39,856 nucleotides of DNA. Origin: Bacteroidaceae bacterium (GTDB lineage Bacteria; Bacteroidota; Bacteroidia; Bacteroidales; Bacteroidaceae). Positions 4,432 to 28,361 of this stretch are shown one piece after another. Position 1 is the stretch's first letter. Every line of letters begins with the position of its first letter. Below the pieces are notes generated by a model. It was not told where the DNA came from. It ran no database searches and saw only the letters and a program-made list of their open reading frames with translations. Position numbers and translations under genes: made by a program. The stretch spans positions 1 through 39,856 of the forward strand of contig JAFTAJ010000032.1 in NCBI GenBank assembly GCA_017458585.1, in the 5' to 3' direction.

Positions 4432-4460
4432 CCATTGACCATTGACCATTGACTATTGAA
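4432..4460. repeat. ATTGACC heptanucleotide tract between export and chain-length genes
   Basis: Four 7-nt units (ATTGACC, ATTGACC, ATTGACT, ATTGAAA) fill the whole gap between the SLBB gene and the Wzz-like gene. Confidence 0.9.
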
Positions 4461-4464
4461 AATT

Positions 4465-5511: not shown

Positions 5512-5540
5512 GAGTTAGGAGTTAGGAATTAGGAGTTAAG
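5503..5540. repeat. TAGGAGT heptanucleotide tract supplying a stop codon and an SD site
   Basis: About five units of TAGGAGT/TAGGAAT. The first TAG is the stop of the Wzz-like gene (5509-5511). The last AGGAG (5531-5535) sits 6 bp before the GTG start of the flippase gene at 5542 and is a good Shine-Dalgarno match. Confidence 0.85.
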
Positions 5541-5541
5541 A

Positions 5542-6861
5542 GTGGGGCTTCATCTGACTGGAAATAAGCGAAAGATAGTCAACAACCTACTGTGGGCTAC
5601 CGGCGGCAAAGTGATAAACCTTGGCGGCACACTGATATTGGGCATCATCGTGGCCCGCTACCTCGGCCCCGAGCAGTATGGACTGATGAACTACATCATC
5701 AGTTATGTTTTTCTTTTCCAGACTCTGGCATGCTTCGGACTTGACAGCATAGAGGTGCGCGAGGAAGCCGCAGGCAATGTGCCCTTCACCACTATCATCG
5801 GCACCGCCTTCTGGATAAAGGTAGTGCTGGGCGTGGTGTGCATCGGACTGTCCATCGGCACTGCCATCATCATGGGCGAGGACGGCTATACCGTAGCCTT
5901 GATAGCGATGTACTCTTGCTACATCGTGTTCAACTCCTTCGTTGTCATACGCAACTACTTCACCTCGCTGGTGCAGAACAAGTACATTGTCCTCTCTGAG
6001 ATATTCCGCACCTTCGTAGGCATCGCCATCAAACTGACGCTGTGGGCTCTCGACTGCTCGCTCACCTGGTTTGTCGCCGCCTTTGCCTTTGACCATGTGC
6101 TGCTGGCCGGCGGCTATATCTCGTCGTACCGCCACAAGATAGGCAGGATGAAATATTGGCACTTCTCGATGTCGTATGCCAAGTATATGCTGAAGGAGTC
6201 GTTTCCTTTGCTGCTCACCAATGCCGCCGTGATTATCTACCAGCGCATCGACCAGGTGATGATAGGCCAGATGGTAAGCAAGGCTGACGTGGGCTATTTC
6301 TCCGTTGCCGCCAAGTTTGTGGAGGTGATGATATTCATTCCCGCCACCATAGCCCATACCATCTCTCCCGTGTTAGTCCAGCTCAGACAAAAGAGCGAAG
6401 AGGCCTACCGCATAAAGAGCCAGCAATTTATGAACATCTCAGTCTGGCTATGCTTCCTGTGTTGCATCGGTGTGTCAGTTATATCCTACTGGCTCGTTCT
6501 CTATACCTTCGGCACACAATATCTGCCTGCTGTTGCAATACTACAAGTTCTGTCCTTTAAAATGGTAAGTGTAGCCTTATCCAATGCCGGCGGAACATTA
6601 GTTATTGTAGAGCATTTGCAGAAGTGGGTCTTCTTCCGCGATATATTTGGATGCATCGTTTGCGTTGCTCTCAACTGGTGGCTTTTGCCTAAGTATGGTG
6701 CCATCGCTGCAGCGTTTGTAGCCATCGCCGCCAATCTCGCCGCCGGCTATGTGGCCGATTTGCTTGTGCCAGCCTATCGCCATATCTTCCGCCAACAAAC
6801 CAAAGCCCTCCTGCTTGGATGGCGCGACCTTTTCCATATAAAGCAACTGCTCAATTCATAA
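5542..6861 (+). CDS. Wzx-type polysaccharide flippase
   Basis: An integral membrane protein of the MOP/MATE-like polysaccharide exporter class that would flip lipid-linked repeat units across the inner membrane. It is 439 residues with many hydrophobic helices spread along its length, consistent with 12-14 membrane segments. It opens with NNLLWATGGKVINLGGTLIL and RYLGPEQYGLMNY, a typical start for this family. The start is a GTG with an AGGAG site 6 bp upstream provided by the repeat tract. Its stop is 1 bp before the polymerase gene, so the two are probably translationally coupled. Confidence 0.9.
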   Translation: MGLHLTGNKRKIVNNLLWATGGKVINLGGTLILGIIVARYLGPEQYGLMNYIISYVFLFQTLACFGLDSIEVREEAAGNVPFTTIIGTAFWIKVVLGVVCIGLSIGTAIIMGEDGYTVALIAMYSCYIVFNSFVVIRNYFTSLVQNKYIVLSEIFRTFVGIAIKLTLWALDCSLTWFVAAFAFDHVLLAGGYISSYRHKIGRMKYWHFSMSYAKYMLKESFPLLLTNAAVIIYQRIDQVMIGQMVSKADVGYFSVAAKFVEVMIFIPATIAHTISPVLVQLRQKSEEAYRIKSQQFMNISVWLCFLCCIGVSVISYWLVLYTFGTQYLPAVAILQVLSFKMVSVALSNAGGTLVIVEHLQKWVFFRDIFGCIVCVALNWWLLPKYGAIAAAFVAIAANLAAGYVADLLVPAYRHIFRQQTKALLLGWRDLFHIKQLLNS

Positions 6862-8191: not shown

Positions 8192-9080
8192 TGGCATGAA
8201 ATGGATAGACCGCTGTCTGCAGAGCCTGCAGCAGAGCTATCTACCCATACAAACCATAGTTATCGACAACGGCTCCACCGACGGTCTGCGCCAATACGTA
8301 CCCGCCCATTATCCGGACATAGTATGGCTACCGCAAGAGCAAAACCTGGGCTTCGGTCAGGCTAATAACATCGGACTGCGCTATGCCCTTGACAAAAACG
8401 CCGACTATGCCCTGCTGCTCAACCAAGATGCATGGATAAATGCTGAGATGCTCGTGCAACTCCTACGATTTGACGACCGCCAGTGCATACTCAGCCCCAT
8501 TCACCTCAACGGCCAAGGCAGCGACTTTGACTTCAATTTCAAGAAGAACACCATCTCCCGCTCGTCCAACATCTGCAACCTGCGCGAGCTGAAGTCCGGC
8601 GACAAACTAAAGCCCTTTGAGGCTCGCGCGGCAGCAGCAGCATGCTGGCTCATACCGTCAACCATAATACAGAAAGTGGGAGGATTCAATCCCCTCTTCT
8701 TCCAATACGGGGAAGACCATAACTACCTTGACCGCGCCTTCTACCACGGTTTCCACCTCAAGGTTGTGCCCACCACCTTCGCCTGCCACGACCGTAATCA
8801 GTACGGCAACAGCAAACTGCACCATAAGTGCCTGGTCTATCGTTACCTGCTCGTTAAGGCAACAGACATAAACGAAGAGCCTACGTTCGGTCAATATCTG
8901 CATATCTGCGGTTTCTGGTGCAAGAAAGGCCTGCACAACCGCAACCTCTTCAAGATGATAGGCCAAAGCATCAGCGGACTAATACGCCTGCGACGCAATC
9001 GCAAAGCTATCAAGGAAAGCCGCGCCGCAGAGCAAGCTGTTGGGCCGACATGGCTGGAAGGATTGACCATTGACTATTGA
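8160..9080 (+). CDS. Family 2 glycosyltransferase (rhamnosyltransferase-like)
   Basis: A cytoplasmic GT-A fold enzyme that would add one sugar to a lipid-linked repeat unit. The N-terminus has the GT2 nucleotide-sugar site (MKIVAIIVTYNG, then VIDNGSTDG), followed by EQNLGFGQANNIGLRYA and a DXD-like LLLNQDAWIN. A GEDHNYLDRAF motif near residue 185 is the usual acceptor-side acidic pair. The layout resembles the WbbL/rhamnosyltransferase subgroup; donor and acceptor are not known. The gene starts inside the polymerase gene. Its final residues (GLTIDY) and TGA stop come from the ATTGACC/ATTGACT repeat, so the natural C-terminus has been replaced or extended by repeat DNA. Confidence 0.88.
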   Translation: MKIVAIIVTYNGMKWIDRCLQSLQQSYLPIQTIVIDNGSTDGLRQYVPAHYPDIVWLPQEQNLGFGQANNIGLRYALDKNADYALLLNQDAWINAEMLVQLLRFDDRQCILSPIHLNGQGSDFDFNFKKNTISRSSNICNLRELKSGDKLKPFEARAAAAACWLIPSTIIQKVGGFNPLFFQYGEDHNYLDRAFYHGFHLKVVPTTFACHDRNQYGNSKLHHKCLVYRYLLVKATDINEEPTFGQYLHICGFWCKKGLHNRNLFKMIGQSISGLIRLRRNRKAIKESRAAEQAVGPTWLEGLTIDY

Positions 9081-9125
9081 CCATTGAAGATTGAGAATTG
9101 AGAATTGAGCATTGAAATTTGAGAA
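9063..9125. repeat. Mixed ATTGACC/ATTGAGA heptanucleotide tract overlapping a gene end
   Basis: About nine 7-nt units start inside the preceding glycosyltransferase gene and run to just before the next. ATTGACC-type units come first and ATTGAGA-type units after. The tract contributes the last codons and the stop of the gene ending at 9080. Confidence 0.9.
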
Positions 9126-9135
9126 TTACTCTGGC

Positions 9136-11030: not shown

Positions 11031-11107
11031 AGGAAGGAGATAGAAGGAGATAGAGGTAGATAGAAGGAGATAGAAGGAGATAGAAGGAGATAAAAGGAGT
11101 AAGAGGT
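11031..11107 (+). repeat. Purine-rich 10-nt tandem tract carrying the SD site of the deacetylase gene
   Basis: About seven units of the type AAGGAGATAG fill the gap between two genes. The last part gives AAGGAG followed by TAAGAGGTAAG and the ATG at 11111, so the repeat supplies likely ribosome binding sequence. Related 10-nt tracts are at 25986-26036 and 38287-38336. Confidence 0.8.
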
Positions 11108-17706: not shown

Positions 17707-20700
17707 TTAACGGACAATTATCTTCTCCTTATTTATTATATATACGCCTTGTGGCAGGGTGATGGTCTCTCGGCCACCAGTGAGGTGGTAGAGACGATAA
17801 ACTCTGCCGTCAACACCATACACAGGCACCACAGTGTCCGACGTGCTGTTGAGCGTGAGGCTGTTGCCCTCCTGGCCTACGATGGCCACGGCATCGTTGA
17901 TACCCGTCAGCTCCTCCGACGCAAACTCGACGGTACGGCTGCCGCTGCGCTCATCCTCACCCAGCGAGGTGGAGAAGAGAACGTTGGAAAGCGAGGCTTT
18001 CAACAATTGACAATTGACCATTGACAATTGACCATTGACAATTTCACTATTTGACAATCCACTTGAGCATTGACCATTATTCTTGCCGAGCTCGAGGGTG
18101 AGTTCGCTGCGGCCAATGGGCAGCTTATGCTTCGCGCTGGAGTAGAGGGAGACGCGATAAAGTTGAGAGTTCGTCATACCCCCTCCCCCTTCGGGGACTC
18201 CCCCTATCTTAAGGGGAGAATCATTAGCTCCTACTTCGGCTATGCTCACATCGAAGTCGGGGATGGAGCGGCTGATGTCGAGATTGTCGATGGTCATGCC
18301 CTCGGGGATGGAGAGGTCGAACTGGAGGCCGCTGTAGTCGCCCTCCTCCACGACAATGGTGAGCGGTATGCTCACGCCCTCGGCGGTGTAGCTCACAGAG
18401 CCTGTAGTTATGGCGGCATCTGCCTCGGGTAGGCCGTAGAACCTACTACTATAGAGGATGCCACCGCCGCCTCCGCCACCTCCGCTGCTACCACTGCCAA
18501 TGAGGTTGCGCACGTTGATAATGTCGGCCACAGTGATGATGTCGTTCTTATCGGTGTCGGCCTGCTCAAACTCAAAATCTTCGTTAGGCAGGTTGAGCAT
18601 ATAGTTGAGCACGCAGACCACATCGGAGGTGGTGATGGAGCCGTCGTCATTCACATCGCCGATGAGTGGCTTGCCGCCGTTGGGCTCCAGATAGTCCTTG
18701 TCGGTATAGCCCAAGGTATTACCGAGGAAGTTGTAGATATACTCGGCTCGCTTGCGGAGCCATGTCTTGGAGCTGGTGGTGACGGTGGCATAGGTCTTGG
18801 CATCGCCATGGCGCCACTTAGTATTGTCGTGTGTGTAGGATGGTGCGGTGAAATTGTAGTAGTCGTCGCAGTAATCGACGAGCTCATCAAGGCTGCCATT
18901 ATAGATGAAGTCGTGCCAGAGGTTGTAGTATTTCTTATCCACTCTCTCATCACAGTATCTCAAGTCTTTCGACCACGCATATCCCACGGTGTCGCCGGTG
19001 CGTGCCCAGAAGTTGAGTGTAGATTGTGCGGTGAAATAGTCGCGGTTCTCTGAGTAACCGAATGCCCAGTCGAAGTCCCACACGGGGCCGAAGACATAGG
19101 GTGAGCTGGTGTCCATGAGATTGGCGTTGTAAACGAAGGTGCTCTTGGGGTGCATTATCTCCACATTGGCGGTGTAGTCGGTGACGAAGAGGTAACGCAC
19201 AAGGTAGTCAAGGTCATAATAGACATCCAGATACTCATCTTTGTTCTTCAGTGCCTGGGTGGCACGGTTGAAACTCTCCTGTATCAGCGACTGCGGGAGC
19301 TGGGTGGTGCCCTCGCTGTAATCGGGGTCTTTGATGTTGACTGGCAGGTTGTAGGTGGCGTCCCTGAACTTGTAGGCCTCGTCGTAGTAGCTGTCCAGCT
19401 CCAGCAGCACGGCGTATGTCTCGTCGTCAAGGTCAACGCTGTTGTTGGATAGCCCCACTTTTTCGGTGAGGTTGTAGGAGCCACGATACTCGCCGTTGAT
19501 ATACAGCTCCACGGGTATCTCGTGGTTGAAGCCCGCTGTCTCCACCAGCTGCGCCATCTTCATGGCCACGGCATTGCTGGTCATGGAGCGTGTCTGGGCG
19601 TTGGCGATGAGGTTCCAATGCTTGCCTTTCTTAAGGCCGAGCACCTTGGTGGCGGTGTCAAACTTAAAATGGTAGGGCGCCTTGCCAGTGGATGTCCACG
19701 AGGTATTGCCGCGGCCTTTAATCTGCATCGGAGTCTCAGGCAGGTCGGGGAACACTCCCGCTCCGTCGATGCGCACCTTGCCGCTCCAGTAGTAGCTTTT
19801 GGAGGTGATGCTGGTGCCGTCGTCGGTAGTGACATATACGATGGGCACATTATAGATAGAATTGGAGTGGTCGGTGGCGAAGTCCACCCTCACCTTCACA
19901 TCACGGCCGTAAGGCTTGATAACATATTCGCCGTTGTATGTGCGTCGCAGTATGGTATGGCCATGGCGGGAGACAGTATAAATGACATCTTTGTCAAAGC
20001 GCACTCGCGTCACCTTACTGTGCTGCAGCGAGTCGCCAATCCATGCCTGCACGTCATCGTCAAGCTTAAACGACGGGCGCAACGTCTTGCCGATGCCCAC
20101 CACGCTGAGGGTGATGAGGGTATCTTCCTCAAACACGCCTATCGCATCGCTGACTATATGGTGGTTGAACTTATTATTGAACTTGAAGCTGTTGAATGCC
20201 GGCAGCTCAGGCGCGGTGTAGGACAGCGAGTCCACCTCGTAGTCATTGTAGGAAAGCGTTGGGCCACCACCCTTGGTGGTGATTGACCATTGACCATTGA
20301 CCATTGACCATTGACCGTTGTCCATTATCTGCACTCCTCCCATATTCTCGATATACATCTCGGGCACGGCCTCCACCCTGCCATCAGCACGATAGACAAA
20401 GAGCACCTTGCCCTCTATGGGCTCCACCTGTGTGCTGTCAATAGTGGGGTCTATGGGATCGGGGCCAGTACCATTGGTGTGGAACTGCTGCCCCTGCGAG
20501 TCATAAAGGTTGAATGTCTCGTTGAGGCCGTATGGTATGCCGCCTTTGCTGTATGCGCCAAGGACATAGCTGCCTGTACGGACATTAAAGAAGAAGGATT
20601 CGCTGCTTACGCTCTGGAAATAGAATATCTCGGTGCCGTCATCAGATGTGGTGTTGCAGATATACCATAGCGACGCATCGCCCTCTATGTAAGACGACAG

Positions 20701-21030
20701 GTGGGCATAGCGCAGTATCTGAGGACTGTTGGTGTACTGGTCGTCAAGGGTGATGTATTGACTGGTAGAGACGTTCTTCAATGCATACTTGCCAGTGCCA
20801 TTGCCCTGCTCCACGAAGTACCACCAGCAGTCGGCATTGTAGGAAGCTTCGTCCATGGTCATACACAGCGGCGAGTTGACATTGTGGTTCGCCCCAATGG
20901 CGGCACTGCTGCCAAGGAAGTATAGCGACTCAATGCGATACTTGGTGGTGGAGCTGATGCCAGTCACCACATCGCCCATAGCCGTAACAGCGGCCATAAG
21001 CATCAGCACGAAAAGACTTACTCTACTCAT
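17707..21030 (-). CDS. Secreted CotH-kinase protein with dockerin and cohesin-like domains (A)
   Basis: This 1107-residue exported protein has a signal peptide (MSRVSLFVLMLMAAVTAMG), a ricin-like N-terminal region (about 25-185), a CotH kinase domain (about 410-760, with KGRGNTSW near 440 and the metal-site motif GPVWDFDWAFG near 652), a type I dockerin (about 788-845, GDVNDDGSITTSDVVCVLNY and ADTDKNDIITVADI), an 8-Gly linker, a cohesin-like domain (about 865-1045) and a C-terminal domain like T9SS sorting tails (VYGVDGRVYRL...QGVYIINKEKIIVR). CotH kinases phosphorylate secreted proteins; the target is unknown. Two heptamer tracts (residues about 234-250 and 984-1009) and one palindrome (about 937-951) are translated in frame. 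It is the last gene of a three-gene operon, with AGGAG from a repeat before its ATG. Confidence 0.88.
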   Translation of the reverse strand: MSRVSLFVLMLMAAVTAMGDVVTGISSTTKYRIESLYFLGSSAAIGANHNVNSPLCMTMDEASYNADCWWYFVEQGNGTGKYALKNVSTSQYITLDDQYTNSPQILRYAHLSSYIEGDASLWYICNTTSDDGTEIFYFQSVSSESFFFNVRTGSYVLGAYSKGGIPYGLNETFNLYDSQGQQFHTNGTGPDPIDPTIDSTQVEPIEGKVLFVYRADGRVEAVPEMYIENMGGVQIMDNGQWSMVNGQWSITTKGGGPTLSYNDYEVDSLSYTAPELPAFNSFKFNNKFNHHIVSDAIGVFEEDTLITLSVVGIGKTLRPSFKLDDDVQAWIGDSLQHSKVTRVRFDKDVIYTVSRHGHTILRRTYNGEYVIKPYGRDVKVRVDFATDHSNSIYNVPIVYVTTDDGTSITSKSYYWSGKVRIDGAGVFPDLPETPMQIKGRGNTSWTSTGKAPYHFKFDTATKVLGLKKGKHWNLIANAQTRSMTSNAVAMKMAQLVETAGFNHEIPVELYINGEYRGSYNLTEKVGLSNNSVDLDDETYAVLLELDSYYDEAYKFRDATYNLPVNIKDPDYSEGTTQLPQSLIQESFNRATQALKNKDEYLDVYYDLDYLVRYLFVTDYTANVEIMHPKSTFVYNANLMDTSSPYVFGPVWDFDWAFGYSENRDYFTAQSTLNFWARTGDTVGYAWSKDLRYCDERVDKKYYNLWHDFIYNGSLDELVDYCDDYYNFTAPSYTHDNTKWRHGDAKTYATVTTSSKTWLRKRAEYIYNFLGNTLGYTDKDYLEPNGGKPLIGDVNDDGSITTSDVVCVLNYMLNLPNEDFEFEQADTDKNDIITVADIINVRNLIGSGSSGGGGGGGGILYSSRFYGLPEADAAITTGSVSYTAEGVSIPLTIVVEEGDYSGLQFDLSIPEGMTIDNLDISRSIPDFDVSIAEVGANDSPLKIGGVPEGGGGMTNSQLYRVSLYSSAKHKLPIGRSELTLELGKNNGQCSSGLSNSEIVNGQLSMVNCQLLKASLSNVLFSTSLGEDERSGSRTVEFASEELTGINDAVAIVGQEGNSLTLNSTSDTVVPVYGVDGRVYRLYHLTGGRETITLPQGVYIINKEKIIVR
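18003..18079. repeat. In-frame AATTGAC/CATTGAC heptamer tract inside CotH gene A
   Basis: 7-nt units of types AATTGAC and CATTGAC, partly degenerate, are translated in the minus direction as residues around 984-1009 (words NGQ, SEIVNGQLSMVNCQ). The paralogue has a different insert at the same place (22362-22474). Confidence 0.9.
18176..18220. repeat. In-frame C-rich palindrome inside CotH gene A
   Basis: A CCCCCTCCCCCTTCGGGGAC-type palindrome is translated as NDSPLKIGGVPEGGGGM within the cohesin-like domain. The paralogue has the same insert at 22570-22615, so the insertion predates the duplication or was copied between the genes. Confidence 0.88.
20281..20327. repeat. In-frame ATTGACC heptamer tract inside CotH gene A
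   Basis: About six units of ATTGACC, the last ones degenerate, are translated as NGQWSMVNGQWS between two conserved segments (MYIENMGGVQI and GGGPTLSYNDYEVDSL). The paralogue has ATTGAGA units at the same position (24642-24690). Confidence 0.92.
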
Positions 21031-21042
21031 CTCTCTTAACTC

Positions 21043-22062
21043 CTAATTCCCGTAGGTGATGATATAATAGATAGCTGTTACGTCAGCAGTGTTGACATTG
21101 CCATCGTTGTTGACATCGGCACGTTCCCTATCGATGCCCGAGTTGTCGCCATCGATGATGTAGCTATACACTGCCACCACATCGGCAGTGTTGATGTAGC
21201 CATCGAGGTTCACATCACCTATCTTCACATAGCGGGCAGTATAGGTAACATCGTGGGCAGGCATAGTGGTGAGCTCCTCGCCTTCCCAGCCGAGGAACAT
21301 GTAGCCGTCAATAACCGGAGCCTCAAAGCCTGGCACAGAAGCGCCGTAGGACACTTGAGAAGTGAAGACTGTCTCGCCCTCAACGATATACTTCAACTCA
21401 TAAGAGTTGACGCACCATATAGCATGCAGGTCAAGATTGGATGCAGGCATCACCTCGGGCACATCGCCCCAGCCACAGAAACTGTAGCCCTCTATGGGGT
21501 CAGGGTCAAGAATGGGATGGATGGCAGCTCCCGGTTCCATCTCGGTAGTATAGTATATCTCCTCGCCATTCCAAAAGGTAAGGATATACTTGTCGGCAGC
21601 TGTTATGGTAAGTGTACATGTGGCATTAGGCATCACGGTCTCCACCCCATTAGTGGTGGTGAAGCGCACATTCTTCGCCACTATCTCGTAGTCACCGGCC
21701 CCCATCGTCTCTGGCACGTTGAGCTGCACAGAGAATATCCTACCCGAGGAACCCGTGATATTGTTTTTCTTGTTGGACGAGTAGCCCACCACCCTCGGCA
21801 GTCCGTTGGCAGCAACGGCGGCCTGCAGAGTGAGGTTGGTGGTGCGCAGCGTCTTAGTGACAGCAGATGTATTGAGCGTGACACCATCGGGCAACACCAT
21901 GTCCATTTGGAAACCACTGTATATGGTGGAAGGGTTGCTCAGCTGCACATATAACGTCCACTGGCCGTCAGTACCTTGGGTAACTTCCAATGCTATCTCG
22001 TCGGCTATGGCCGGAGCAGAGAATAGAGAACAGAGAATAGAGAATAGAATTATTTTTTTCAT
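21043..22062 (-). CDS. Secreted cohesin-like / InlB-repeat / dockerin protein
   Basis: A 339-residue exported protein. After the signal peptide (MKKIILFSILCSLFSAPAIA) comes a cohesin-like domain (about 22-155; QLSNPSTIYSGFQMDMVLP), then two InlB B-repeat (Listeria-Bacteroides) modules (about 160-215, ending FCGWGDVPEVMPASNLDLHA; and about 222-278, ending FLGWEGEELTTMPAHDVTY), then a type I dockerin (about 281-339; DVNLDGYINTADVVAVYSYI and ADVNNDGNVNTADVTAIYYI). It probably serves as a surface scaffold or adhesin. The ATG directly follows the TAA of the upstream CotH gene. The signal-peptide core is encoded by an AGAGAAT-type heptamer tract. Confidence 0.85.
   Translation of the reverse strand: MKKIILFSILCSLFSAPAIADEIALEVTQGTDGQWTLYVQLSNPSTIYSGFQMDMVLPDGVTLNTSAVTKTLRTTNLTLQAAVAANGLPRVVGYSSNKKNNITGSSGRIFSVQLNVPETMGAGDYEIVAKNVRFTTTNGVETVMPNATCTLTITAADKYILTFWNGEEIYYTTEMEPGAAIHPILDPDPIEGYSFCGWGDVPEVMPASNLDLHAIWCVNSYELKYIVEGETVFTSQVSYGASVPGFEAPVIDGYMFLGWEGEELTTMPAHDVTYTARYVKIGDVNLDGYINTADVVAVYSYIIDGDNSGIDRERADVNNDGNVNTADVTAIYYIITYGN
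22018..22052. repeat. AGAGAAT heptamer tract forming a signal-peptide core
   Basis: Units of AGAGAAT/AGAGAAC recur with 7-nt spacing. Read on the minus strand they give ATTCTCT-type codons translated as ILFSILCSLFS, the hydrophobic core of the signal peptide of the InlB-repeat gene. Confidence 0.8.
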
Positions 22063-25000
22063 TTAACGCACAATTATCTTCTGCTGGTTGATGATATATA
22101 CGCCCTGCGGCAGGAATATGGTTTCTCGGCCACCAGTGAGGTGATACAGACGATAAACTCTGCCGTCAACACCATACACGGGCACCACAGTGTCCGATGT
22201 GCTGTTGAGCGTGAGGCTGTGACCCTCCTGGCCTACAATGGCTACGGCATCGTTGATACCTGTCAGCTCCTCCGAGGCGAACTCGGCGGTGCGGCTGCCG
22301 CTACGTTCGTCCTCACCCAGTGAGGTGGAGAAGAGGACATTGGAAAGCGAAGCCTTCAACAATTGAGAATTGCCACTTCGTTCTCGCGGCTCTTTAATGT
22401 CGGAACCGGCTTCGCCGACAACCGACGAGCCGCTCGCGACCCCTTCGGGGTTGAACATTGACCATTGACCATTATTCTTGCCCAATTCGAGGGTAAGTTC
22501 GCTGCGGCCAATGGGCAACTTATGCTTAGCGCTGGAGTAGAGGGAGACTCTATAAAGTTGAGAGTTCGTCATACCCCCTCCCCCTTCGGGTACTCCCCCT
22601 ATCTTAAGGGGAGAATCATTAGCTCCTACTTCTGCTATGCTCACATCGAAGTCGGGGATGGAGCGGCTGATATCGAGGTTGTCTATGGTCATGCCTTCGG
22701 GGATAGAGAGGTCGAACTGGAGGCCGCTGTAGTTGCCGTCCTCCACCACGATGGTCAGTGGTATGCTCACGCCCTCGGCGGTGTAGCTCACAGAGCCTGT
22801 GGTGATAGCGGCGTCTGCCTCGGGTAGGCCGTAGAAGGTGCCGCTCTTAGCCGACTGAGCCAGCGCCAGATTGCGCACCATGATAAGGTCGGCAATGGTG
22901 ATGATATCGTTGCCATCGAGGTCGGCGCGGTCAAACTCAAAGTCCTCGTTGGGCAGGTTGAGCATGTGGTTGAACACACACACTACGTCGGACGTAGTGA
23001 TGGTGCCGTCATCGTTGACATCGCCCATCAGCAGACCAACAGTGGCATCGTTAAGGTAGCCCATCTTGTTGTAGCCCAGCGTATTGCCCATATAGTCGTA
23101 TATGAAGTTAGCTCTGGCACGCAGCCACTCCTTAGCTCTCTCGGTCACTGTGGCATAGGCCTGTGCATCGCCGCGGCGCCACTTGGTATTGTCGTGAGTG
23201 AACGACTGGGCGGCAAATTCATAGTAGTCGTCGCAGAAGTCGATGAGGTCATCCAGACTGCCATCGTTCATGAAGCGGTGCCAGAGTTGATAGTATATCT
23301 TGTCGAAGTTCTCGCCGCAGTAGCGGAAGTTGTACCCCCAGCTACCGGCTTCCATCGATGAAGCTCTGGTCCAATAGTCATTAGTCGTTGTGCTATTAAA
23401 ATAACCGCCATTGTACTGATAACCGAATCCCCAGTCGAAGTCCCACACAGGACCGAACACATAAGTCGAGTTGCTGTCCATAATATTGGGGTTGTAGCAG
23501 AAGGTGCTCTTGGGGTGGAACAGTTCGTAGTTCTCACACAGTTCGTCCACCAGCATGAAACGTGCCAGATAGTCAAGGTCTAACAGATATTGCATATCCT
23601 CGCCGTTGGCCAGCCCATCCCACACGCGGTTGACGCTCTGCTGCACCATCGACATGGTCAGTTGCGTGGTACCTTCGCTGAAGTCTGGCTCCTTTATATT
23701 GATGGGCAGGTTGAAACTGGACGTCCTGAACTTATATGTCTCGTCGTAGTAGCTGTCGAGCTCAATCATCACAGCATTGGTCTCGTCGTCAAGGTCGATA
23801 CTGTTATTGGAGATACCCACCTTTTCGGTAAGGTTGTATGAGCCGCGGTAATCGCCATTGACATACAGCTCCACTGGTATCTCGTGGTTGAAGCCCGCCG
23901 TCTCCACCAACTGCGCCGTCTTCATGGCCACGGCATTGCTGGTCATGGAGCGTGTCTGCGCATTGGCGATGAGGTTCCAGTGCTTGCCTTTCTTTAGGCC
24001 AAAGGGCTTGACGGCCGTCTCAAACTTCATGTGGTAGGGCGCCTTGCCCGATGATGTCCACGAAGAGTTGCCGCGGCCCTTTATCTGCATCGGTGTCTCC
24101 GGCATGTCGGGGAACACACCCGCTCCGTCGATAGATATCTTGCCGTCCCAGTAGTAATACTTTGAGGTGATGCTGGTGCCATCATCGGTGGTGACATACA
24201 CCGTGGGTACTTGGAAATCACTAGTGGAATGGTCGGTAGCGAAGTCCACGCGCACCGTCACATCGAGGCCGTATGGCATTGTCTTGTAGGGACCGCCTGG
24301 GAAGCGTCGCAAGATAGTCTGGCCGTGGTGAGCCACTGTATAGACAACATCCTTGTCAAAACGAACGCGAGTGACCTTGCTGTGCTGCAGCGAGTCGCCA
24401 ATCCAGGCATGCACACCCTCGTCGAGTTTAAACGACGGGCGCAGCGTCTTGCCGATGCCCACTACACTGACGGTGATGAGGGTATCTTCCTCAAACACGC
24501 CTATAGCGTCATTAATGATATGGTGATTGAACTTATTGTTGAACTTGAAGCTATTGAATGCCGGCAACTCCGGAGACGTGTACGTCAGCGAGTCCACCTC
24601 GTAGTCCTGATAGGTGAATGAGGGGCCACCGTTTTTGGTGTTGATTGAGAATTGAGAATTGAGAATTGAGAATTGACCGTTGGTATTTATCTGCACTCCT
24701 CCCATACTCTCGATGTACATCTCTGGTACAGCCTCCACCCTGCCGTCGGCACGATAGACGAAGAGCACCTTGCCCTCTATGGGCTCCAGGCCATCCACCT
24801 TGGTGGTATCGATAGGGGCAATGGTGTCCACCGGCAGTGAGTCGCCGGATATCACCAGTCCCTGCGTGGCAAGATATTCGCGGTGTCGCTCGTCCCTCGA
24901 TAGGAAGGCGAATGTAGAGCCACCGTCAACGCTGAACCAGCAGATGCCGTTGGACGAGTAGTCGTTCCAATAATAGCGACCTGTGAGGAAGTGTACATTG

Positions 25001-25980
25001 TCCTCTGCATTCTCGCTACACGACTTCACGCCTATCGAGTAGCCCTCATAGTCGCCGCGGCTACTCCAGCTAATCACCCACGAATGGTCGTTAGTCTTGG
25101 GAGTGCCATAGACCACCGACACATCGCTCTCCGACGTACCGATTGTCTCGGTCAACTTAGCGCTGACATAGCTGTCGCCCTCCACCCTTATCTGCACGCC
25201 GTCAGCAGTAGGCACGAAGTAGAACTGGTTATTGGGCAGCGACTTGCTCTGGCTGAGCCATCCGCCGCTCTTATAGGTGAGCGGCGCCACCCAGTTTTGC
25301 GACCTCGAGTTGCGTATGTAGTAGTACACAGGGTCGGCCAGATCGGTGGTCAACACCACGGGTGTCTCCAATGGGTAGCTGGTCCAGTATAGGCCCTGCT
25401 CATCACGTCCGCAGACGGTGTTGTAATCCTTCTCGGGGTCGTAGGGCATGCCATCCTCCTTGAAGATATAGAACAATTCATTGTTTGACGGAGTAGCCCC
25501 CGTGTTGGCAAAAGTTCCCAGCACACCGGAGCCGCTACGCACATTGAATCGATACACCTCGTTGGCCACGCTCTCAAAGGCATACACCCCGTCGTCTATC
25601 ACGCGGATGGTCCACAGGGTAGAGTCACCGCGCAATACATCGGTGGTGCTCATATAGCGCCGTATGGGATTGTCGGAACGAACGTCATCCCACATCAGGA
25701 AGGCACCCGTGGAGGCATTGCGCAGCGCATACTGTCCAGCCTTATACTGCAGCACATACCACCAGCAGTCGGCAGAGTATTCCGGGTCGTCGGTAGTAAC
25801 GCATAGGGGCGAGTTGACACTATGCAACGCCCCCAGCGCCACGGAGGCACCGGCGGAGCTGTAAGACTCAATGCGCAGCTTCATCGTCGGGTCAAATGAC
25901 AACGATTCAGTTTGCGCCTGCGCCCACACGCCCGCGAGCAAGGCAGCCAACAAACATATATATCGCAACAATCTGTTCAT
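22063..25980 (-). CDS. Secreted CotH-kinase protein with dockerin and cohesin-like domains (B)
   Basis: A 1305-residue paralogue of the CotH protein ending at 17707 and the first gene of the operon. Signal peptide (MNRLLRYICLLAALLAGVWA), two ricin-like regions (about 30-180 and 200-395; the second is absent from paralogue A), the repeat-derived segment (430-446), CotH kinase (about 600-950; KGRGNSSW near 632, GPVWDFDWGFG near 850), dockerin (about 985-1040; GDVNDDGTITTSDVVCVFNH), cohesin-like domain (about 1060-1240) and a C-terminal sorting-like tail (QGVYIINQQKIIVR). There is no poly-Gly linker. It contains in-frame repeat DNA at three places, including a hairpin array translated near residues 1177-1200. 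Its stop touches the start of the InlB-repeat gene. It is transcribed from a TACATTTGC element about 70 bp upstream. Confidence 0.88.
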   Translation of the reverse strand: MNRLLRYICLLAALLAGVWAQAQTESLSFDPTMKLRIESYSSAGASVALGALHSVNSPLCVTTDDPEYSADCWWYVLQYKAGQYALRNASTGAFLMWDDVRSDNPIRRYMSTTDVLRGDSTLWTIRVIDDGVYAFESVANEVYRFNVRSGSGVLGTFANTGATPSNNELFYIFKEDGMPYDPEKDYNTVCGRDEQGLYWTSYPLETPVVLTTDLADPVYYYIRNSRSQNWVAPLTYKSGGWLSQSKSLPNNQFYFVPTADGVQIRVEGDSYVSAKLTETIGTSESDVSVVYGTPKTNDHSWVISWSSRGDYEGYSIGVKSCSENAEDNVHFLTGRYYWNDYSSNGICWFSVDGGSTFAFLSRDERHREYLATQGLVISGDSLPVDTIAPIDTTKVDGLEPIEGKVLFVYRADGRVEAVPEMYIESMGGVQINTNGQFSILNSQFSINTKNGGPSFTYQDYEVDSLTYTSPELPAFNSFKFNNKFNHHIINDAIGVFEEDTLITVSVVGIGKTLRPSFKLDEGVHAWIGDSLQHSKVTRVRFDKDVVYTVAHHGQTILRRFPGGPYKTMPYGLDVTVRVDFATDHSTSDFQVPTVYVTTDDGTSITSKYYYWDGKISIDGAGVFPDMPETPMQIKGRGNSSWTSSGKAPYHMKFETAVKPFGLKKGKHWNLIANAQTRSMTSNAVAMKTAQLVETAGFNHEIPVELYVNGDYRGSYNLTEKVGISNNSIDLDDETNAVMIELDSYYDETYKFRTSSFNLPINIKEPDFSEGTTQLTMSMVQQSVNRVWDGLANGEDMQYLLDLDYLARFMLVDELCENYELFHPKSTFCYNPNIMDSNSTYVFGPVWDFDWGFGYQYNGGYFNSTTTNDYWTRASSMEAGSWGYNFRYCGENFDKIYYQLWHRFMNDGSLDDLIDFCDDYYEFAAQSFTHDNTKWRRGDAQAYATVTERAKEWLRARANFIYDYMGNTLGYNKMGYLNDATVGLLMGDVNDDGTITTSDVVCVFNHMLNLPNEDFEFDRADLDGNDIITIADLIMVRNLALAQSAKSGTFYGLPEADAAITTGSVSYTAEGVSIPLTIVVEDGNYSGLQFDLSIPEGMTIDNLDISRSIPDFDVSIAEVGANDSPLKIGGVPEGGGGMTNSQLYRVSLYSSAKHKLPIGRSELTLELGKNNGQWSMFNPEGVASGSSVVGEAGSDIKEPRERSGNSQLLKASLSNVLFSTSLGEDERSGSRTAEFASEELTGINDAVAIVGQEGHSLTLNSTSDTVVPVYGVDGRVYRLYHLTGGRETIFLPQGVYIINQQKIIVR
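22362..22474. repeat. In-frame composite insert (heptamers plus hairpin array) in CotH gene B
   Basis: ATTGAGA-type units (22362-22373) lead into nested hairpins and then ATTGACC units (22455-22474). The hairpins are GCGGCTC (22386-22392)/GAGCCGC (22427-22433), an inner GTCGG...CCGAC, and CCCC-TTC-GGGG (22440-22450). Everything is read through as codons. Paralogue A has only heptamers here. Confidence 0.88.
22570..22615. repeat. In-frame C-rich palindrome inside CotH gene B
   Basis: Nearly identical to 18176-18220 in the paralogue and translated to the same peptide (NDSPLKIGGVPEGGGGM). Confidence 0.88.
24642..24690. repeat. In-frame ATTGAGA heptamer tract inside CotH gene B
   Basis: About five ATTGAGA units plus a degenerate end are translated as NGQFSILNSQFSI. 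This is the same position in the protein as the ATTGACC tract of paralogue A (20281-20327). Confidence 0.92.
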
Positions 25981-25985
25981 ATTTG

Positions 25986-26036
25986 AAGTAGGTAAAAGTA
26001 GATAGAGGTAGGTAGAGGCAGGTAGAGGTAGATAAA
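25986..26036. repeat. GTAGAGGTAG 10-nt tandem tract in the CotH operon leader
   Basis: About five units of the type GGTAGAGGTA occupy the untranslated leader between the promoter element at 26052-26060 and the CotH B start codon. Confidence 0.8.
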
Positions 26037-26051
26037 TGTATAATTAGCGAC

Positions 26052-26060
26052 GCAAATGTA
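26052..26060 (-). promoter_or_regulatory. Promoter -7 element of the CotH/InlB operon
   Basis: The minus strand reads TACATTTGC, a full TAnnTTTGC match. It lies about 72 bp before the CotH B start. A TTTCGG or TTGG word upstream could act as a weak -33 element. Confidence 0.65.
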
Positions 26061-26121
26061 CTAACTTTGACCGAAACGACCAATATTTTGGGAGCATATT
26101 CGTACGTTTTACGACATTTTT

Positions 26122-26712
26122 TTATTCCTCGTCACCGAAACTATCGTTGGTAGTGGCCACGCGCTGCATCGAAGTCTTGCCATCAGTCAGGCTCAGTGTT
26201 ACGGCCACTACGGTCTGTTCATCGCTGTGAGGCACACTTACGCTAGCTTCCAAGGTGAGCGCCGTGGCGGCGGCATTGGTGAGGGTGAGACCATCGAGAA
26301 TGGCCGAGTTGCCCAGCGACTGGTCGAGGTAATCGGCGAAGTCGGTCTTAACAAAACGGTGCACAAGCAATGTGTCGGCATCGCGAGTCACAACGACGGT
26401 GGCGCGATTGTCGCTATAAGGACCAAAGTTGTCATTGGCCACGCGGGGCAGGCGCTCGTCAGGCTCCACCAACAGGCTGACGCGGTAGCCCGCCTCGGTG
26501 TCGAGCGTCTGGTTGGAGGCTCTCAGCTTATTGAGACCATTCTCCTTGTACTCGTTGGTCTCTACCAGTTCGTTGACCTCCTCATCGATGCTCTCGGCGT
26601 TATCAGCTGGCTTACTGCCGCATGAGCAGAGGAGTAGGGAGAAAAGGATGAAAAGACCCCCTCTTATCCCCCTATAGGGGGAGGATTTGAATCTTGAAAT
26701 TTTGTTTTTCAT
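26122..26712 (-). CDS. Lipoprotein, possibly DUF4738
   Basis: A 196-residue lipoprotein with a long N-terminus: MKNKISRFKSSPYRGIRGG precedes the hydrophobic core and lipobox (LFILFSLLLCSC). The segment FKSSPYRGIRGG is encoded by a C-rich palindrome (26655-26693), so the n-region of the signal peptide is repeat-derived. The mature part is acidic at first (ESIDEEVNELVETNEY), then has LVEPDERLPRVANDNFGPYSDNRA and beta-rich sequence. It resembles Bacteroidetes lipoproteins of the DUF4738 type, from memory only. It starts 7 bp after ribD and is the last gene of the housekeeping run. Function unknown. Confidence 0.7.
   Translation of the reverse strand: MKNKISRFKSSPYRGIRGGLFILFSLLLCSCGSKPADNAESIDEEVNELVETNEYKENGLNKLRASNQTLDTEAGYRVSLLVEPDERLPRVANDNFGPYSDNRATVVVTRDADTLLVHRFVKTDFADYLDQSLGNSAILDGLTLTNAAATALTLEASVSVPHSDEQTVVAVTLSLTDGKTSMQRVATTNDSFGDEE
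26655..26693. repeat. C-rich palindrome inside a lipoprotein signal peptide
   Basis: The words ACCCCCTC, ATCCCCCTATAGGGGGA and GGATTTG form a self-complementary block of the CCCCT...AGGGG family, translated as SSPYRGIRGG just before the hydrophobic core. Confidence 0.8.
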
Positions 26713-26719
26713 AAGTATG

Positions 26720-27670
26720 TTATTGATTATTGATGTATATGTTTATATGATGTGTGCCCATCTGTATGGTATGGTGTGGTGTCAAATGGCTGAGGTCGGG
26801 AGCGGATATAGATTGACCATTGACCATTGAACATTGACCATTTTCACTCCTCGCGCCTATCTCTTGGTGTATTTCGTCCCAGAGTCCAAGGTCGAGGAAC
26901 TGACGGTGGGTGGCTGCCCCACCCTCCACGAGCAATGATTGCAGTGAGCGGCGGTAGAGGTCGCCGAGCAGGTCGGGGATTGACTGAGTATGACTGTCAT
27001 AGACTATACGCACGGGATTGGGGCCGCTGTAGTGTCGCGTGGTGAGCGACGGACGGTCGCTCTGGTTGGTGCGCCAGCCCACGAGGATGGCACTGCTGGT
27101 AGCACGCAGGTGATGCACATGGCGCAAGGTGCAGGGAGAGGAAATCATAAGTCGTTCCCCTTTTACGCCCATCACGCCGTCGGGCGTCTGTGCCCACTTG
27201 AGGATGATGTAGGGGCGGTGCTTGGTGTGGAAGGTAATGAAGCGTCGATTGAGGTAACGACACTCCTCCTCCATCACACCGACGGTGACATCGATACCCG
27301 CGTCGCGCAGCTTCTGCACTCCGCGCCCGCTGACCTTGGCGAAGGGGTCGAGACAGCCCACCACCACACGCTTCACGCCTTTACTTATGATAAGGTCAGC
27401 ACAAGGTGGCGTCTTGCCTTGGTGAGCGCATGGCTCCAGGCTGACATACAGCGTGCTCTGCGGCAGCAAGTGCCGGTCCTCCGGTCTGACGGAAGCAAAG
27501 GCATTGACCTCTGCATGGGGCTGTCCGCAGCGGGCATGGAATCCCTCGCCTATGATGCGGTCGTCAGCCACGATGACAGCGCCGACCATTGGATTGGGCG
27601 GTGCGCCTATCTCGCCATTGAGGGCAAGCTGCAGGCAGCGGGACATGTATGTCAATTGACCATTGACCAT
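26720..27670 (-). CDS. ribD: Riboflavin biosynthesis deaminase/reductase RibD
   Basis: A bifunctional enzyme of riboflavin synthesis: N-terminal pyrimidine deaminase, C-terminal reductase. Zinc and catalytic residues are present: HAEVNAFA (His52, Glu54) and PCAHQGKTPPC (Cys81, Cys90). NPMVGAVIV, the reductase start RPYIILKWAQTPDG and LLVEGGAATH are also conserved. The length of 316 is short. About 30-40 residues normally found between the VRIVYDSHTQSIP strand and the LYRRSLQSLLVEGG segment seem to be missing (judged from memory of the family). Near the C-terminus an in-frame heptamer tract is translated (ENGQCSMVNGQS, about 276-287). The first residues MVNGQL are also repeat-encoded; ATG 27646 is an alternative start. 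Activity of the reductase half is uncertain. Confidence 0.85.
   Translation of the reverse strand: MVNGQLTYMSRCLQLALNGEIGAPPNPMVGAVIVADDRIIGEGFHARCGQPHAEVNAFASVRPEDRHLLPQSTLYVSLEPCAHQGKTPPCADLIISKGVKRVVVGCLDPFAKVSGRGVQKLRDAGIDVTVGVMEEECRYLNRRFITFHTKHRPYIILKWAQTPDGVMGVKGERLMISSPCTLRHVHHLRATSSAILVGWRTNQSDRPSLTTRHYSGPNPVRIVYDSHTQSIPDLLGDLYRRSLQSLLVEGGAATHRQFLDLGLWDEIHQEIGARSENGQCSMVNGQSISAPDLSHLTPHHTIQMGTHHINIYINNQ
26810..26843. repeat. In-frame ATTGACC heptamer tract inside ribD
   Basis: Four to five units (ATTGACC, ATTGACC, ATTGAAC, ATTGACC) are translated as NGQCSMVNGQS close to the C-terminus of RibD, after the conserved LWDEIHQEIGAR segment. Confidence 0.9.
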
Positions 27671-27711
27671 TGAAATTAGAAATTAGAAATTGAACATTGA
27701 CCATTGACTTT
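27653..27711. repeat. Mixed ATTGACC/AATTAGA tract between rnhB and ribD
   Basis: ATTGACC units, then AATTAGA units, then ATTGACC units again, with an almost unbroken 7-nt phase. The tract fills the gap and provides the first codons of ribD (ATGGTCAATGGTCAA). Confidence 0.88.
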
Positions 27712-27713
27712 TG

Positions 27714-28331
27714 TCAGTCAAACAAATCCAGCTGCACGGGTGGCAGCAGATTGTAGCTCATGCGGTGGTATGGCGACGGGCCGTGGGTACGGATGGCATC
27801 GCGGTGAGCTGCGGTGGGATAGCCTTTGTTTTGATTCCAGCAGTAGCAGGGATATTGCTCGTGCAGCTCGTCCATATAGTCGTCGCGGTAGGTCTTGGCC
27901 AGGATGGATGCGGCAGCTATGGAGAGGAACTTGCCATCGCCCTTGACGACAGTCTGGTAGGGTATGTCGTGGTAGGACTTGAACTTGTTGCCATCCACTA
28001 TGATTGACTGTGGACGCAGCTTCAGTTGGTCGAGGGCGCGGTGCATGGCGAGTATGGAGGCATTGAGTATGTTGATGCGGTCGATCTCCTCGGCAGTGAC
28101 GATGCCTATGGCCCACGCAAGGGCGTCGCGCTCTATTATCTGGCGCAGCTCATGACGACGCTGGTCGGTGAGCTGCTTGGAGTCGTTGATAGCCTCGTTC
28201 TGATAGTCGGACGGGAATATCACAGCAGCAGCATACACACTGCCTGCCAGGCATCCGCGACCGGCTTCATCGCAGCCAGCCTCCGCCACATCGGGAACGA
28301 GACAAGACTTTAACGATTGACCATTGACCAT
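27714..28331 (-). CDS. rnhB: Ribonuclease HII
   Basis: An endonuclease that cuts RNA of RNA-DNA hybrids and removes ribonucleotides from DNA. The 205 residues hold the active-site motif GCDEAGRGCLAG (Asp21, Glu22), DSKQLT, VDGNKF, GDGKFLSIAAASILAK and a C-terminal HRDAIRTHGPSPYHRMSY. The start is notable: the only usable ATG in frame is part of the GGTCAAT repeat (first residues MVNGQS), and normal family sequence begins directly after it (LKSCLVPDVAEAGCDEAG). A heptamer tract therefore provides the start codon. Confidence 0.93.
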   Translation of the reverse strand: MVNGQSLKSCLVPDVAEAGCDEAGRGCLAGSVYAAAVIFPSDYQNEAINDSKQLTDQRRHELRQIIERDALAWAIGIVTAEEIDRINILNASILAMHRALDQLKLRPQSIIVDGNKFKSYHDIPYQTVVKGDGKFLSIAAASILAKTYRDDYMDELHEQYPCYCWNQNKGYPTAAHRDAIRTHGPSPYHRMSYNLLPPVQLDLFD

Positions 28332-28361
28332 TGACGATTGACCATTGACTATTGACGATTA
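28311..28361. repeat. ATTGACC heptamer tract at the rnhB start
   Basis: About seven units (ATTGACC, ATTGACG, ATTGACT). The minus-strand reading of a unit pair gives the ATG of rnhB at 28329-28331. Confidence 0.9.

What the first reader, a model, noticed from the sequence alone, without database searches (positions are those of the whole stretch)
18003..28361. 7-nt repeats that read the same peptide in all frames and stay open in one direction
Because 7 is 1 modulo 3, (GGTCAAT)n cycles through GGT CAA TGG TCA ATG GTC AAT in any frame and has no stop; (TCTCAAT)n and (ATTCTCT)n are also stop-free. The opposite strands of the first two hit TGA in every frame. In ribD and both CotH genes every internal tract is in the stop-free direction (NGQWSMV or NSQFSIL peptides). 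Tracts in the stop direction terminate a gene (9080), and TAGGAGT, with stops in both directions, is never internal. The repeats are thus built so that insertion inside a gene can be tolerated whatever the frame of entry.
Basis: partly seen in the sequence, partly recalled or inferred. Interest (0 to 1): 0.85.

Follow-up and report, generated by a model that had tools for sequence, protein, structure and literature searches.

The report
Seven-base repeats that survive inside genes
A group of gut bacteria carries more than a hundred seven-base tandem repeats, many inside apparently working genes; they look tolerated because selection keeps the readable ones, not because they are built to be readable.

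Summary
The arithmetic and the window observation hold: (GGTCAAT)n, (TCTCAAT)n and (ATTCTCT)n are stop-free one way, and the five internal tracts in ribD and the two CotH genes run that way. The design reading fails. Elsewhere in this genome five tracts of AGGAGT-type heptamers, which carry stops both ways, lie inside four long ORFs (IleRS, UvrD-like helicase and others), open because the units that would put TAG in frame are altered (23 of 23; 2 of 35 in the other phases). Units are not stop-poor against letter shuffles. Openness does predict survival: 66 of 142 one-way-open tracts lie inside ORFs, against 5 of 63 stop-both-ways tracts.

Arrays (33 units in 74 tracts, fixed period 7) mark six genomes forming one clade of the genus; samples of six other genomes had none. 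The same ribD and CotH regions hold different heptamers in different species, and some arrays form apparent signal-peptide cores. An ~81-nt hairpin element without an Rfam match, supported by covariation, sits within such arrays and in ORFs, resembling Rickettsia palindromic elements. What makes the arrays is unknown; slippage plus copying between loci is my best guess.

The parts
18003..18043 (-). GGTCAAT/TGTCAAT-type heptamer array inside CotH ORF 1 (17707-21030), peptide VNGQLSMVNCQLL
   Evidence: TRF; in-ORF, sense-open
20282..20326 (-). (GGTCAAT)n inside CotH ORF 1, peptide GQWSMVNGQWSI
   Evidence: the same region holds other heptamers or none in relatives
22018..22048 (-). (ATTCTCT)n forming the hydrophobic core of the apparent signal peptide of the 339-aa dockerin protein (21043-22062)
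   Evidence: signal peptide judged by eye
22451..22473 (-). short GGTCAAT array inside CotH ORF 2 (22063-25980), just before the 81-nt element on the ORF strand
22366..22455 (-). E81: ~81-nt structured interspersed element (90-nt query used) inside CotH ORF 2, peptide NPEGVASGSSVVGEAGSDIKEPRERSGN; not seen at this site in the paralogue or in the other 12 aligned CotH sequences
24644..24676 (-). (TCTCAAT)n inside CotH ORF 2, same alignment position as 20282-20326 of its paralogue, peptide GQFSILNSQFSI
26812..26842 (-). GGTCAAT array in a C-terminal, length-variable region of ribD (26720-27670)
   Evidence: orthologues carry other heptamers or none here
27655..27708 (-). mixed array at the ribD start (the listed start codon lies in the GGTCAAT tract) and in the gap to the RNase HII ORF
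28316..28360 (-). GGTCAAT array containing the listed start of the RNase HII ORF (27714-28331)
9062..9127 (+). ATTGACC/ATTGAGA (stop-direction) array in which ORF 8160-9080 ends (looks like a glycosyltransferase by eye; not searched)
5503..5543 (+). (AGGAGTT)n, stops in both directions, at the end of ORF 4456-5511

Best explanation
The tracts are a lineage-specific population of dispersed heptanucleotide tandem arrays. They appear and turn over without regard to reading frame, and purifying selection then sorts them. Shown here: (1) the period (7), not the sequence, is the constant (33 units in 74 tracts); (2) arrays are about 12 times denser outside ORFs; (3) inside ORFs one-way-open units survive mostly in the open direction; (4) stop-both-ways units are found inside ORFs only where the units that would put TAG in frame are altered, giving a 21-nt (3-unit) coding block; (5) in the five genes compared (ribD, two CotH, IleRS, radical SAM) the arrays lie in length-variable regions (loops inferred from alignments), and hydrophobic ones in apparent signal peptides; (6) the carriers of the genus form one clade. 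Inferred: arrays are born by slippage or template switching on short seeds with a step of about 7 nt, spread or are replaced by copying between dispersed arrays, and in genes can change length only in net multiples of 3 nt. An ~81-nt hairpin element (E81) often sits within the arrays and is carried into genes with them. Confidence refers mainly to the selection-filter account; I put the birth mechanism at about 0.45.
For: Period spectrum: 52 runs at period 7, 14 at 8, 0-8 at the other non-multiples of 7 between 4 and 20, 0 in shuffles. 74 tracts, 33 canonical units. Density 7.7 per 100 kb coding against 90.7 per 100 kb non-coding, end-overlaps counted as outside. Direction and openness counts. 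Five stop-both-ways arrays in IleRS, radical SAM, UvrD-like and C10 peptidase ORFs with domains found: 7th base of the unit at the critical phase G22 A1 T0, other phases T33 G2, intergenic T57 G35 A17. T = 0 there is forced by the ORF being open; the information is that such ORFs exist and that the change is confined to that phase. Same regions with different heptamers between orthologues, none in the non-carriers shown. An extra 36-nt GGTCAAT insert in G009 ribD where the six other sequences shown have none. Unit letters not stop-poor overall. Carriers 6 of 6 in one clade, support 100/100, on 17 of the 19 genomes of the genus. Six non-carriers sampled at 60-91 kb each have 0 period-7 tracts. 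Hydrophobic in-gene tracts N-terminal in 7 of 8 against 3 of 71 others, P 3.2e-7, a post hoc test.
Against: A birth mechanism is not shown. The same unit (GGTCAAT) dominates in a genome of another genus (8 of 11 tracts in G034), which fits a sequence-preferring or horizontally spread element better than unit-blind slippage. MutS, reverse transcriptase and Y1 transposase families do not track with carriers. Carriers are not uniform: G007 and G001 have no array at the CotH 2 site, and G001 none in the ribD region. Excess 21-nt periodicity inside ORFs is only weakly met (P 0.064). Gene calls are my own hexamer-based calls trained on this genome; a gene broken by a tract would be scored as 'overlap end' or 'intergenic' (36 of 42 end-overlaps are in the stop direction), so purging cannot be told from truncation there.
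Confidence: 0.72

Rival explanations
1. One reading: the heptamers are elements selected to be readable in any frame, so that they can enter genes.
For: Open direction in 62 of 66 in-gene one-way-open tracts; excess of one-way-open tracts in six relatives, 49 of 62 against 30.5 expected, and deficit of stop-both-ways, 11 against 19.6.
Against: No overall excess of openable units and a deficit of both-ways-open units under letter permutation; excess of stop-both-ways units in this genome; 140 of 219 tracts are not inside ORFs; stop-both-ways arrays are in genes with changed units.
Confidence: 0.08
2. A sequence-specific dispersed mobile element (MITE/REP-like, with E81 as its core) carries heptamers as terminal repeats; arrays are its landing sites or scars.
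For: E81 lies within arrays of many heptamer types with AAT shared at both ends in many copies; a heptamer run on at least one side in 20 of 33 copies; 49 flank arrays of 17 units scored on the 142 sides of 71 copies. Two units dominate at many loci.
Against: G001 and G034 have the arrays but no E81 match; 33 unit types; Y1 and RT families not associated with carriers; no target duplication established.
Confidence: 0.2
3. Phase-variable contingency loci: in-gene heptamers exist because gain or loss of one unit (7 = 1 mod 3) switches the gene off reversibly.
For: Unit length not a multiple of 3; 79 of 219 tracts inside ORFs; heptanucleotide tracts of hmw1A are a known case of phase variation (search listing only, PMC8262952).
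Against: Host genes include an IleRS and ribD, poor candidates for switching; the altered units preserve one frame. Unit-number variation was not tested.
Confidence: 0.12
4. Assembly or ORF-calling artefact.
For: The genome is a fragmented draft (47 contigs); a metagenomic origin is inferred from the named relatives.
Against: Arrays in the same gene regions in several separate genome assemblies, two of them matching named rumen MAG contigs by length, and none in the non-carriers shown.
Confidence: 0.03

Closest known systems
TAACTGA heptamer direct repeats of Beggiatoaceae, Cyanobacteria and some Bacteroidetes (PMC4679880; search passages and sections 3, 12, 15 read)
   Same: Dispersed 7-nt tandem arrays; the paper already notes that one direction has stops in all three frames and so lies at ORF ends, while the reverse could occur anywhere, and it searched for the heptapeptide read from them.
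   Different: One fixed unit, mostly just upstream of start codons, a regulatory site proposed. Here 33 units in 74 tracts, many inside conserved genes, and stop-bearing units made readable inside genes.
GGGAATC / GGGGA(C/T)T heptamers of Xanthomonas and Nostoc (PMC4692102; passages read); STRR sequences of cyanobacteria (recalled)
   Same: Genome-wide heptamer arrays, under-represented in coding regions, varying between close relatives.
   Different: G-rich, G-quadruplex-forming units; the common units here are richer in A+T, and 79 of 219 tracts are in ORFs.
Heptanucleotide long simple sequence repeats (Mrazek 2007, seen only as described in PMC4679880 and PMC4692102)
   Same: Period 7 the most abundant class in most genomes; polymerase slippage proposed.
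   Different: Described there as a genome-level statistic; here tied to one clade of a genus, with orthologue comparison at single loci.
Rickettsia palindromic elements and the 107-bp Correia/NEMIS form (PMC10969869, PMC2229807; passages read)
   Same: Short stem-loop elements inserted in frame in unrelated conserved genes; for Correia, the form with open frames is in genes and the form with stops almost never.
   Different: E81 is shorter (~81 nt), sits within heptamer arrays, and is in a Bacteroidaceae clade; mobility not shown.

Membership tests
Heptanucleotide simple-sequence-repeat / STRR-like arrays | Tandem 7-nt units at many loci | tested here: met
Heptanucleotide simple-sequence-repeat / STRR-like arrays | Mostly outside coding sequence | tested here: met
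   7.7 vs 90.7 per 100 kb; 140 of 219 not inside ORFs
TAACTGA repeat family | Unit TAACTGA | tested here: not met
   not among the 33 canonical units of the 74 tracts (440 kb)
TAACTGA repeat family | Arrays placed just upstream of start codons | tested here: inconclusive
   only neighbour orientation was compared, no clear preference: 74/11/8 vs 300/45/38 co/divergent/convergent
Rickettsia palindromic element (for E81) | Base-paired stem-loop element | tested here: met
   97.6% of cells paired, 13 of 19 pairs with two-sided changes, 0 of 500 shuffles as high on both
Rickettsia palindromic element (for E81) | In-frame insertion in protein genes | tested here: met
   24 of 83 copies inside ORFs, all in one orientation, two of them at the ORF start; one length class mod 3 in 22 of 23 genic vs 31 of 48 intergenic copies
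Rickettsia palindromic element (for E81) | 105-146 bp, in Rickettsia | tested here: not met
   81 nt between the flanking AA motifs in 17 of 22 measured of 33 copies, 78 in 3, 84 in 2; relatives are Bacteroidaceae. Not filed as RPE
Rickettsia palindromic element (for E81) | Terminal inverted repeats | not tested
   a 3-bp outer helix was predicted; no search for terminal repeats was made
Phase-variable SSR locus | Unit-number variation within a population switches the frame | not testable with these tools
   no reads or strain sets available

The most novel reading that the evidence does not exclude
One bacterial clade gained, once, a heritable tendency to make period-7 tandem arrays of almost any sequence. 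These arrays, with an 81-nt structured element that rides in them, continually rewrite protein loops and signal peptides, even in essential genes, while selection in the host frame turns 7-nt arrays into 21-nt coding repeats.
Probability: 0.35. Interest if true: 0.82.

Novelty: new variant of a known kind. Interest (0 to 1): 0.6.

Why it matters
Dispersed heptamers have been reported mainly as intergenic features. Here they are a source of new coding sequence in conserved proteins (IleRS, RibD, CotH, radical SAM, helicase) and in apparent signal peptides, and the effect of the reading frame can be read directly from unit phase. Because carriers form one clade beside array-free sisters in the same genus, the old question of what makes heptamer arrays in some genomes and not others becomes a defined comparison on one branch of a tree.

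Tried and rejected
Design for openness: rejected by letter permutation and by the stop-both-ways arrays in genes. Mismatch-repair loss: MutS_V found in 16 of 16 genomes searched, 7 carriers and 9 others. Reverse transcriptase: 3 of 7 carriers and 3 of 9 others. Y1 transposase: 2 of 7 carriers and 3 of 9 others. Known RNA family for E81: in 10 loci only tRNAs reached the gathering score; window 0 Rfam matches, 0 tRNA genes. DNA folding of the GGTCAAT array: not stable, z 0.71. Neighbour-gene orientation of non-internal tracts: like all gaps. General 21-nt excess in genes: weak, P 0.064. The idea that E81 is 84 nt (12 units) long, in phase with the heptamers: rejected. Single-strand RNA fold of one E81 copy: z only -1.86; the covariation test carried the point. 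GGTCAAT as a phylum-wide feature: weak, since 8 genomes besides our own match in the sample of 395 but 6 match the reversed control pattern. Alignment of 12 ribD proteins showed only 7, because my motif filter lost G010, G015, G018, G008 and G005; the IleRS tree holds 17 of 19 genomes of the genus, without G003 and G011. Not run: structure prediction, fold search, solved-structure search, NCBIfam/PHROGs/PADLOC scans, the viral, phage, plasmid and E. coli collections, signal-peptide prediction.

Literature: paper searches listed no paper that, by title and start of abstract, describes these units in Bacteroidales. In one search, by exact sequence, two papers share one 14-base string each; by title one is about a transporter and one about insect markers, and I did not open them. 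This is a negative only for the held library.
Full report
WHAT IS THERE. The window is a whole 39,856-nt contig (G000:C21) of a 2.4 Mb draft genome. The closest named ribD relatives are rumen Bacteroidaceae MAGs, 75-79% identical. Two unnamed relatives match their contigs by length: G001 with RGIG8180 and G009 with RGIG10102. Tandem Repeats Finder shows heptamer arrays every few kilobases. In 440 kb of this genome there are 52 strong period-7 runs, 14 at period 8, 0-8 at the other non-multiples of 7 between 4 and 20, and none at any period tested in one Markov shuffle of each sequence. At a slightly lower threshold there are 74 tracts with 33 canonical units; the commonest are GGTCAAT (13), AGGAGTT (10) and AAATTAG (8). 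GGTCAATx3 has 119+140 overlapping genome-wide sites and none for the reversed control.

THE OBSERVATION. The three named units are stop-free in the direction given, and all five internal tracts of ribD and the two CotH ORFs are in that direction. Pfam supports the gene names: CotH, RibD_C plus deaminase, RNase HII. ORF 8160-9080 ends in a stop-direction tract. In the window the AGGAGTT array only touches an ORF end. Genome-wide that rule breaks.

DIRECTION AND OPENNESS. Over 840 kb of this genome plus 59-100 kb from each of six other carriers there are 219 tracts: 79 inside ORFs, 42 overlapping ORF ends, 98 intergenic (ORFs called by my own script). In this genome the density is 7.7 per 100 kb of coding and 90.7 per 100 kb of non-coding DNA, end-overlaps counted as outside. 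Of the 79 inside, 70 have a consensus open in the sense direction and 9 do not; of the 66 with a one-way-open unit, 62 are in the open direction. At ORF ends it is the reverse: 36 stop-direction, 6 open. Being inside depends on openness: 66 of 142 one-way-open, 8 of 14 both-ways-open, 5 of 63 stop-both-ways; Fisher P 2.6e-8 for one-way-open against stop-both-ways.

NOT BUILT FOR OPENNESS. If the units were designed to be readable, shuffling the letters within each unit should lower the share with an open direction. Overall it does not: 98 of 136 tracts against about 101 expected, with both-ways-open 7 against 25.8 and stop-both-ways 38 against 35.0 (made before the second 400 kb of this genome was fetched). 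In this genome alone stop-both-ways units are in excess (27 against 15.7 of 74). Counted once per unit type it shrinks to 17 of 25 against 12.8 (sd 2.3) and 6 against 6.3.

HOW STOP-BEARING ARRAYS LIVE IN GENES. Five arrays of the AGGAGT/AGGAAT type lie inside four long ORFs: two in a UvrD-helicase/PD-(D/E)XK ORF, and one each in a C10 peptidase ORF, a radical SAM ORF and an IleRS-like ORF (tRNA-synt_1, anticodon and DUF5915 domains). They read GVRSEEL-type heptads. At the unit phase where T would complete an in-frame TAG the base is G 22, A 1, T 0; at the other two phases T 33, G 2; in intergenic arrays T 57, G 35, A 17. The zero is forced by the ORFs being open; what it shows is that stop-bearing arrays do become readable and that the altered units are confined to the one phase that matters, so a 7-nt array has become a 21-nt one. 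A general excess of 21-nt periodicity inside ORFs over other places was only weak (P 0.064).

ORTHOLOGUES. The same CotH region holds GGTCAAT in one paralogue here and TCTCAAT in the other, ACTCCTC in G016, a TCAAT-type array in G013, GGTCAAT-type or mixed arrays in G009, and a degenerate one in G001 CotH 1. CotH 2 of the carriers G007 and G001 has none, nor do the non-carriers G012 and G010 (14 sequences). The ribD C-terminal region holds GGTCAAT here, a GVRSEEL-type array in G016, a degenerate one in G013, an E81-containing insert in G007, and no clear array in G001 or G012; G009 has a further 36-nt GGTCAAT insert at a site where the six other sequences shown have none. In IleRS a stretch that reads FTGEEPVVAVADRQR in G009 and similarly in G013, G001 and six non-carriers is replaced here by GSEELGMRNEELGIRNE. 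These regions are re-filled or replaced by different units, not just extended.

SIGNAL PEPTIDES. Eight in-gene tracts read as mostly hydrophobic (at least 60%); seven of them begin within the first 20 residues, against 3 of 71 other in-gene tracts (P 3.2e-7; the test was chosen after seeing the list). Six of the seven look like signal peptides by eye, such as MKKIILFSILCSLFSAPAIAD in the window and MKKTVFFFLFSVLCAAGSAD elsewhere. No predictor was run.

WHO HAS ARRAYS. Among sampled genomes of the genus, period-7 tracts run at 6-20 per 100 kb in six and at 0 in six others. The remaining seven genomes of the genus are called non-carriers only because the GGTCAAT and AGGAGT patterns find nothing in them. 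GGTCAATx3 is in 7 of 61 relatives searched, own included. GGTCAATx4 is in 9 of 395 of the phylum sample, own included, but 6 genomes match the reversed control, so outside this clade that unit is hardly above control. AGGAGTNx4 is in 56 of 399 of the family sample, in 11 of 30 genera; its reversed control also hits many genomes, because it is itself a related heptamer. On a tree of IleRS proteins from 17 of the 19 genomes of the genus the six carriers are one group with 100/100 support. Carriers do not differ from others in MutS, and neither reverse transcriptases nor Y1 transposases track with them (16 genomes).

THE 81-NT ELEMENT. CotH ORF 2 carries, next to a GGTCAAT array, an insert absent at that site from its paralogue and the other aligned CotH sequences. 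It has 10 matches in this genome, 12 in G009, 18 in G013, at least 37 in G007 and at least 46 in G016 (candidates scored were capped there), none in G001 or G034, and 0-2 short partial ones in seven non-carriers. Copies sit within heptamer arrays of many types. Over 33 copies the structure is strongly supported: 97.6% of cells pair and 13 of 19 pairs show two-sided changes; of five measures, four are reached by no shuffle of 500 and one by 3. Rfam has no match. Of 83 distinct copies in fetched loci, 24 are inside ORFs, all in one orientation, reading frame 0 in 15, frame 1 in 8 and frame 2 in 1; 58 are intergenic and 1 overlaps an ORF end. The other orientation has nearly as many open frames (mean 1.6 against 1.7 of 3, from the counts), so stops alone do not explain the bias; coupling to the direction of the host array may. 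Length is of one class mod 3 in 22 of 23 genic but 31 of 48 intergenic copies (12 of 83 not measured; P 0.004): selection rather than design. It works like a Rickettsia palindromic element but is not filed as one.

MECHANISM. Shown: fixed period with many sequences, dense outside genes, frame-dependent survival inside, turnover in the same gene regions, one clade in the genus. Inferred: birth by slippage or template switching on short seeds, spread and replacement by copying between arrays. Against pure slippage: the same unit dominates in a genome of another genus (G034). The all-frames property is arithmetic (7 = 1 mod 3), and its consequence for direction inside ORFs was already noted for TAACTGA arrays (PMC4679880, section 15). 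What is new here, as far as the searches show, is the in-gene evidence: the unit-phase pattern, the turnover between orthologues, the signal-peptide use and the E81 partner.

Noticed in passing
window 11033-11099 and 25988-26040; L034:17789-17842, L035:5505-5655, L035:11355-11434, L292:8666-8702, L306:14755-14791: 10-nt arrays (GTAGGTAGAG / GAAGGAGATA type) end 2-12 nt upstream of a called start in 6 of 9 strong period-10 arrays of this genome sample; the weaker window array at 25988-26040 lies just before the CotH ORF 2 start. A separate, sharply placed 5' leader repeat.
   Followed up: partly
L041:11700-13727 (-), two sites: The radical SAM ORF carries, at two places, a similar stretch ending in PVSSPYKGDGRGS absent from the aligned orthologues: another repeat family inside genes.
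   Followed up: no
window 22570-22600 and 18175-18205 (-): A GC-rich stretch (CCCGAAGGGGGAGGGGG) in both CotH ORFs recurs in L041, L046 and L066 and may be a further interspersed element.
   Followed up: no
IleRS orthologues, L356 and L358: G007 and G016 IleRS hold a PLKGED-ARTPL-LGGVGG insert at another place where the other aligned sequences have none.
   Followed up: no
L274 (G007:C15): E81 occurs in a local series of three copies with about 95-nt spacing, joined by AATTAGG units.
   Followed up: no
window 36124-36211: 9/18/27-nt repeats within ORF 33892-36558 (IF-2-like by eye, not searched) give an [12 protein letters not shown] low-complexity stretch.
   Followed up: no
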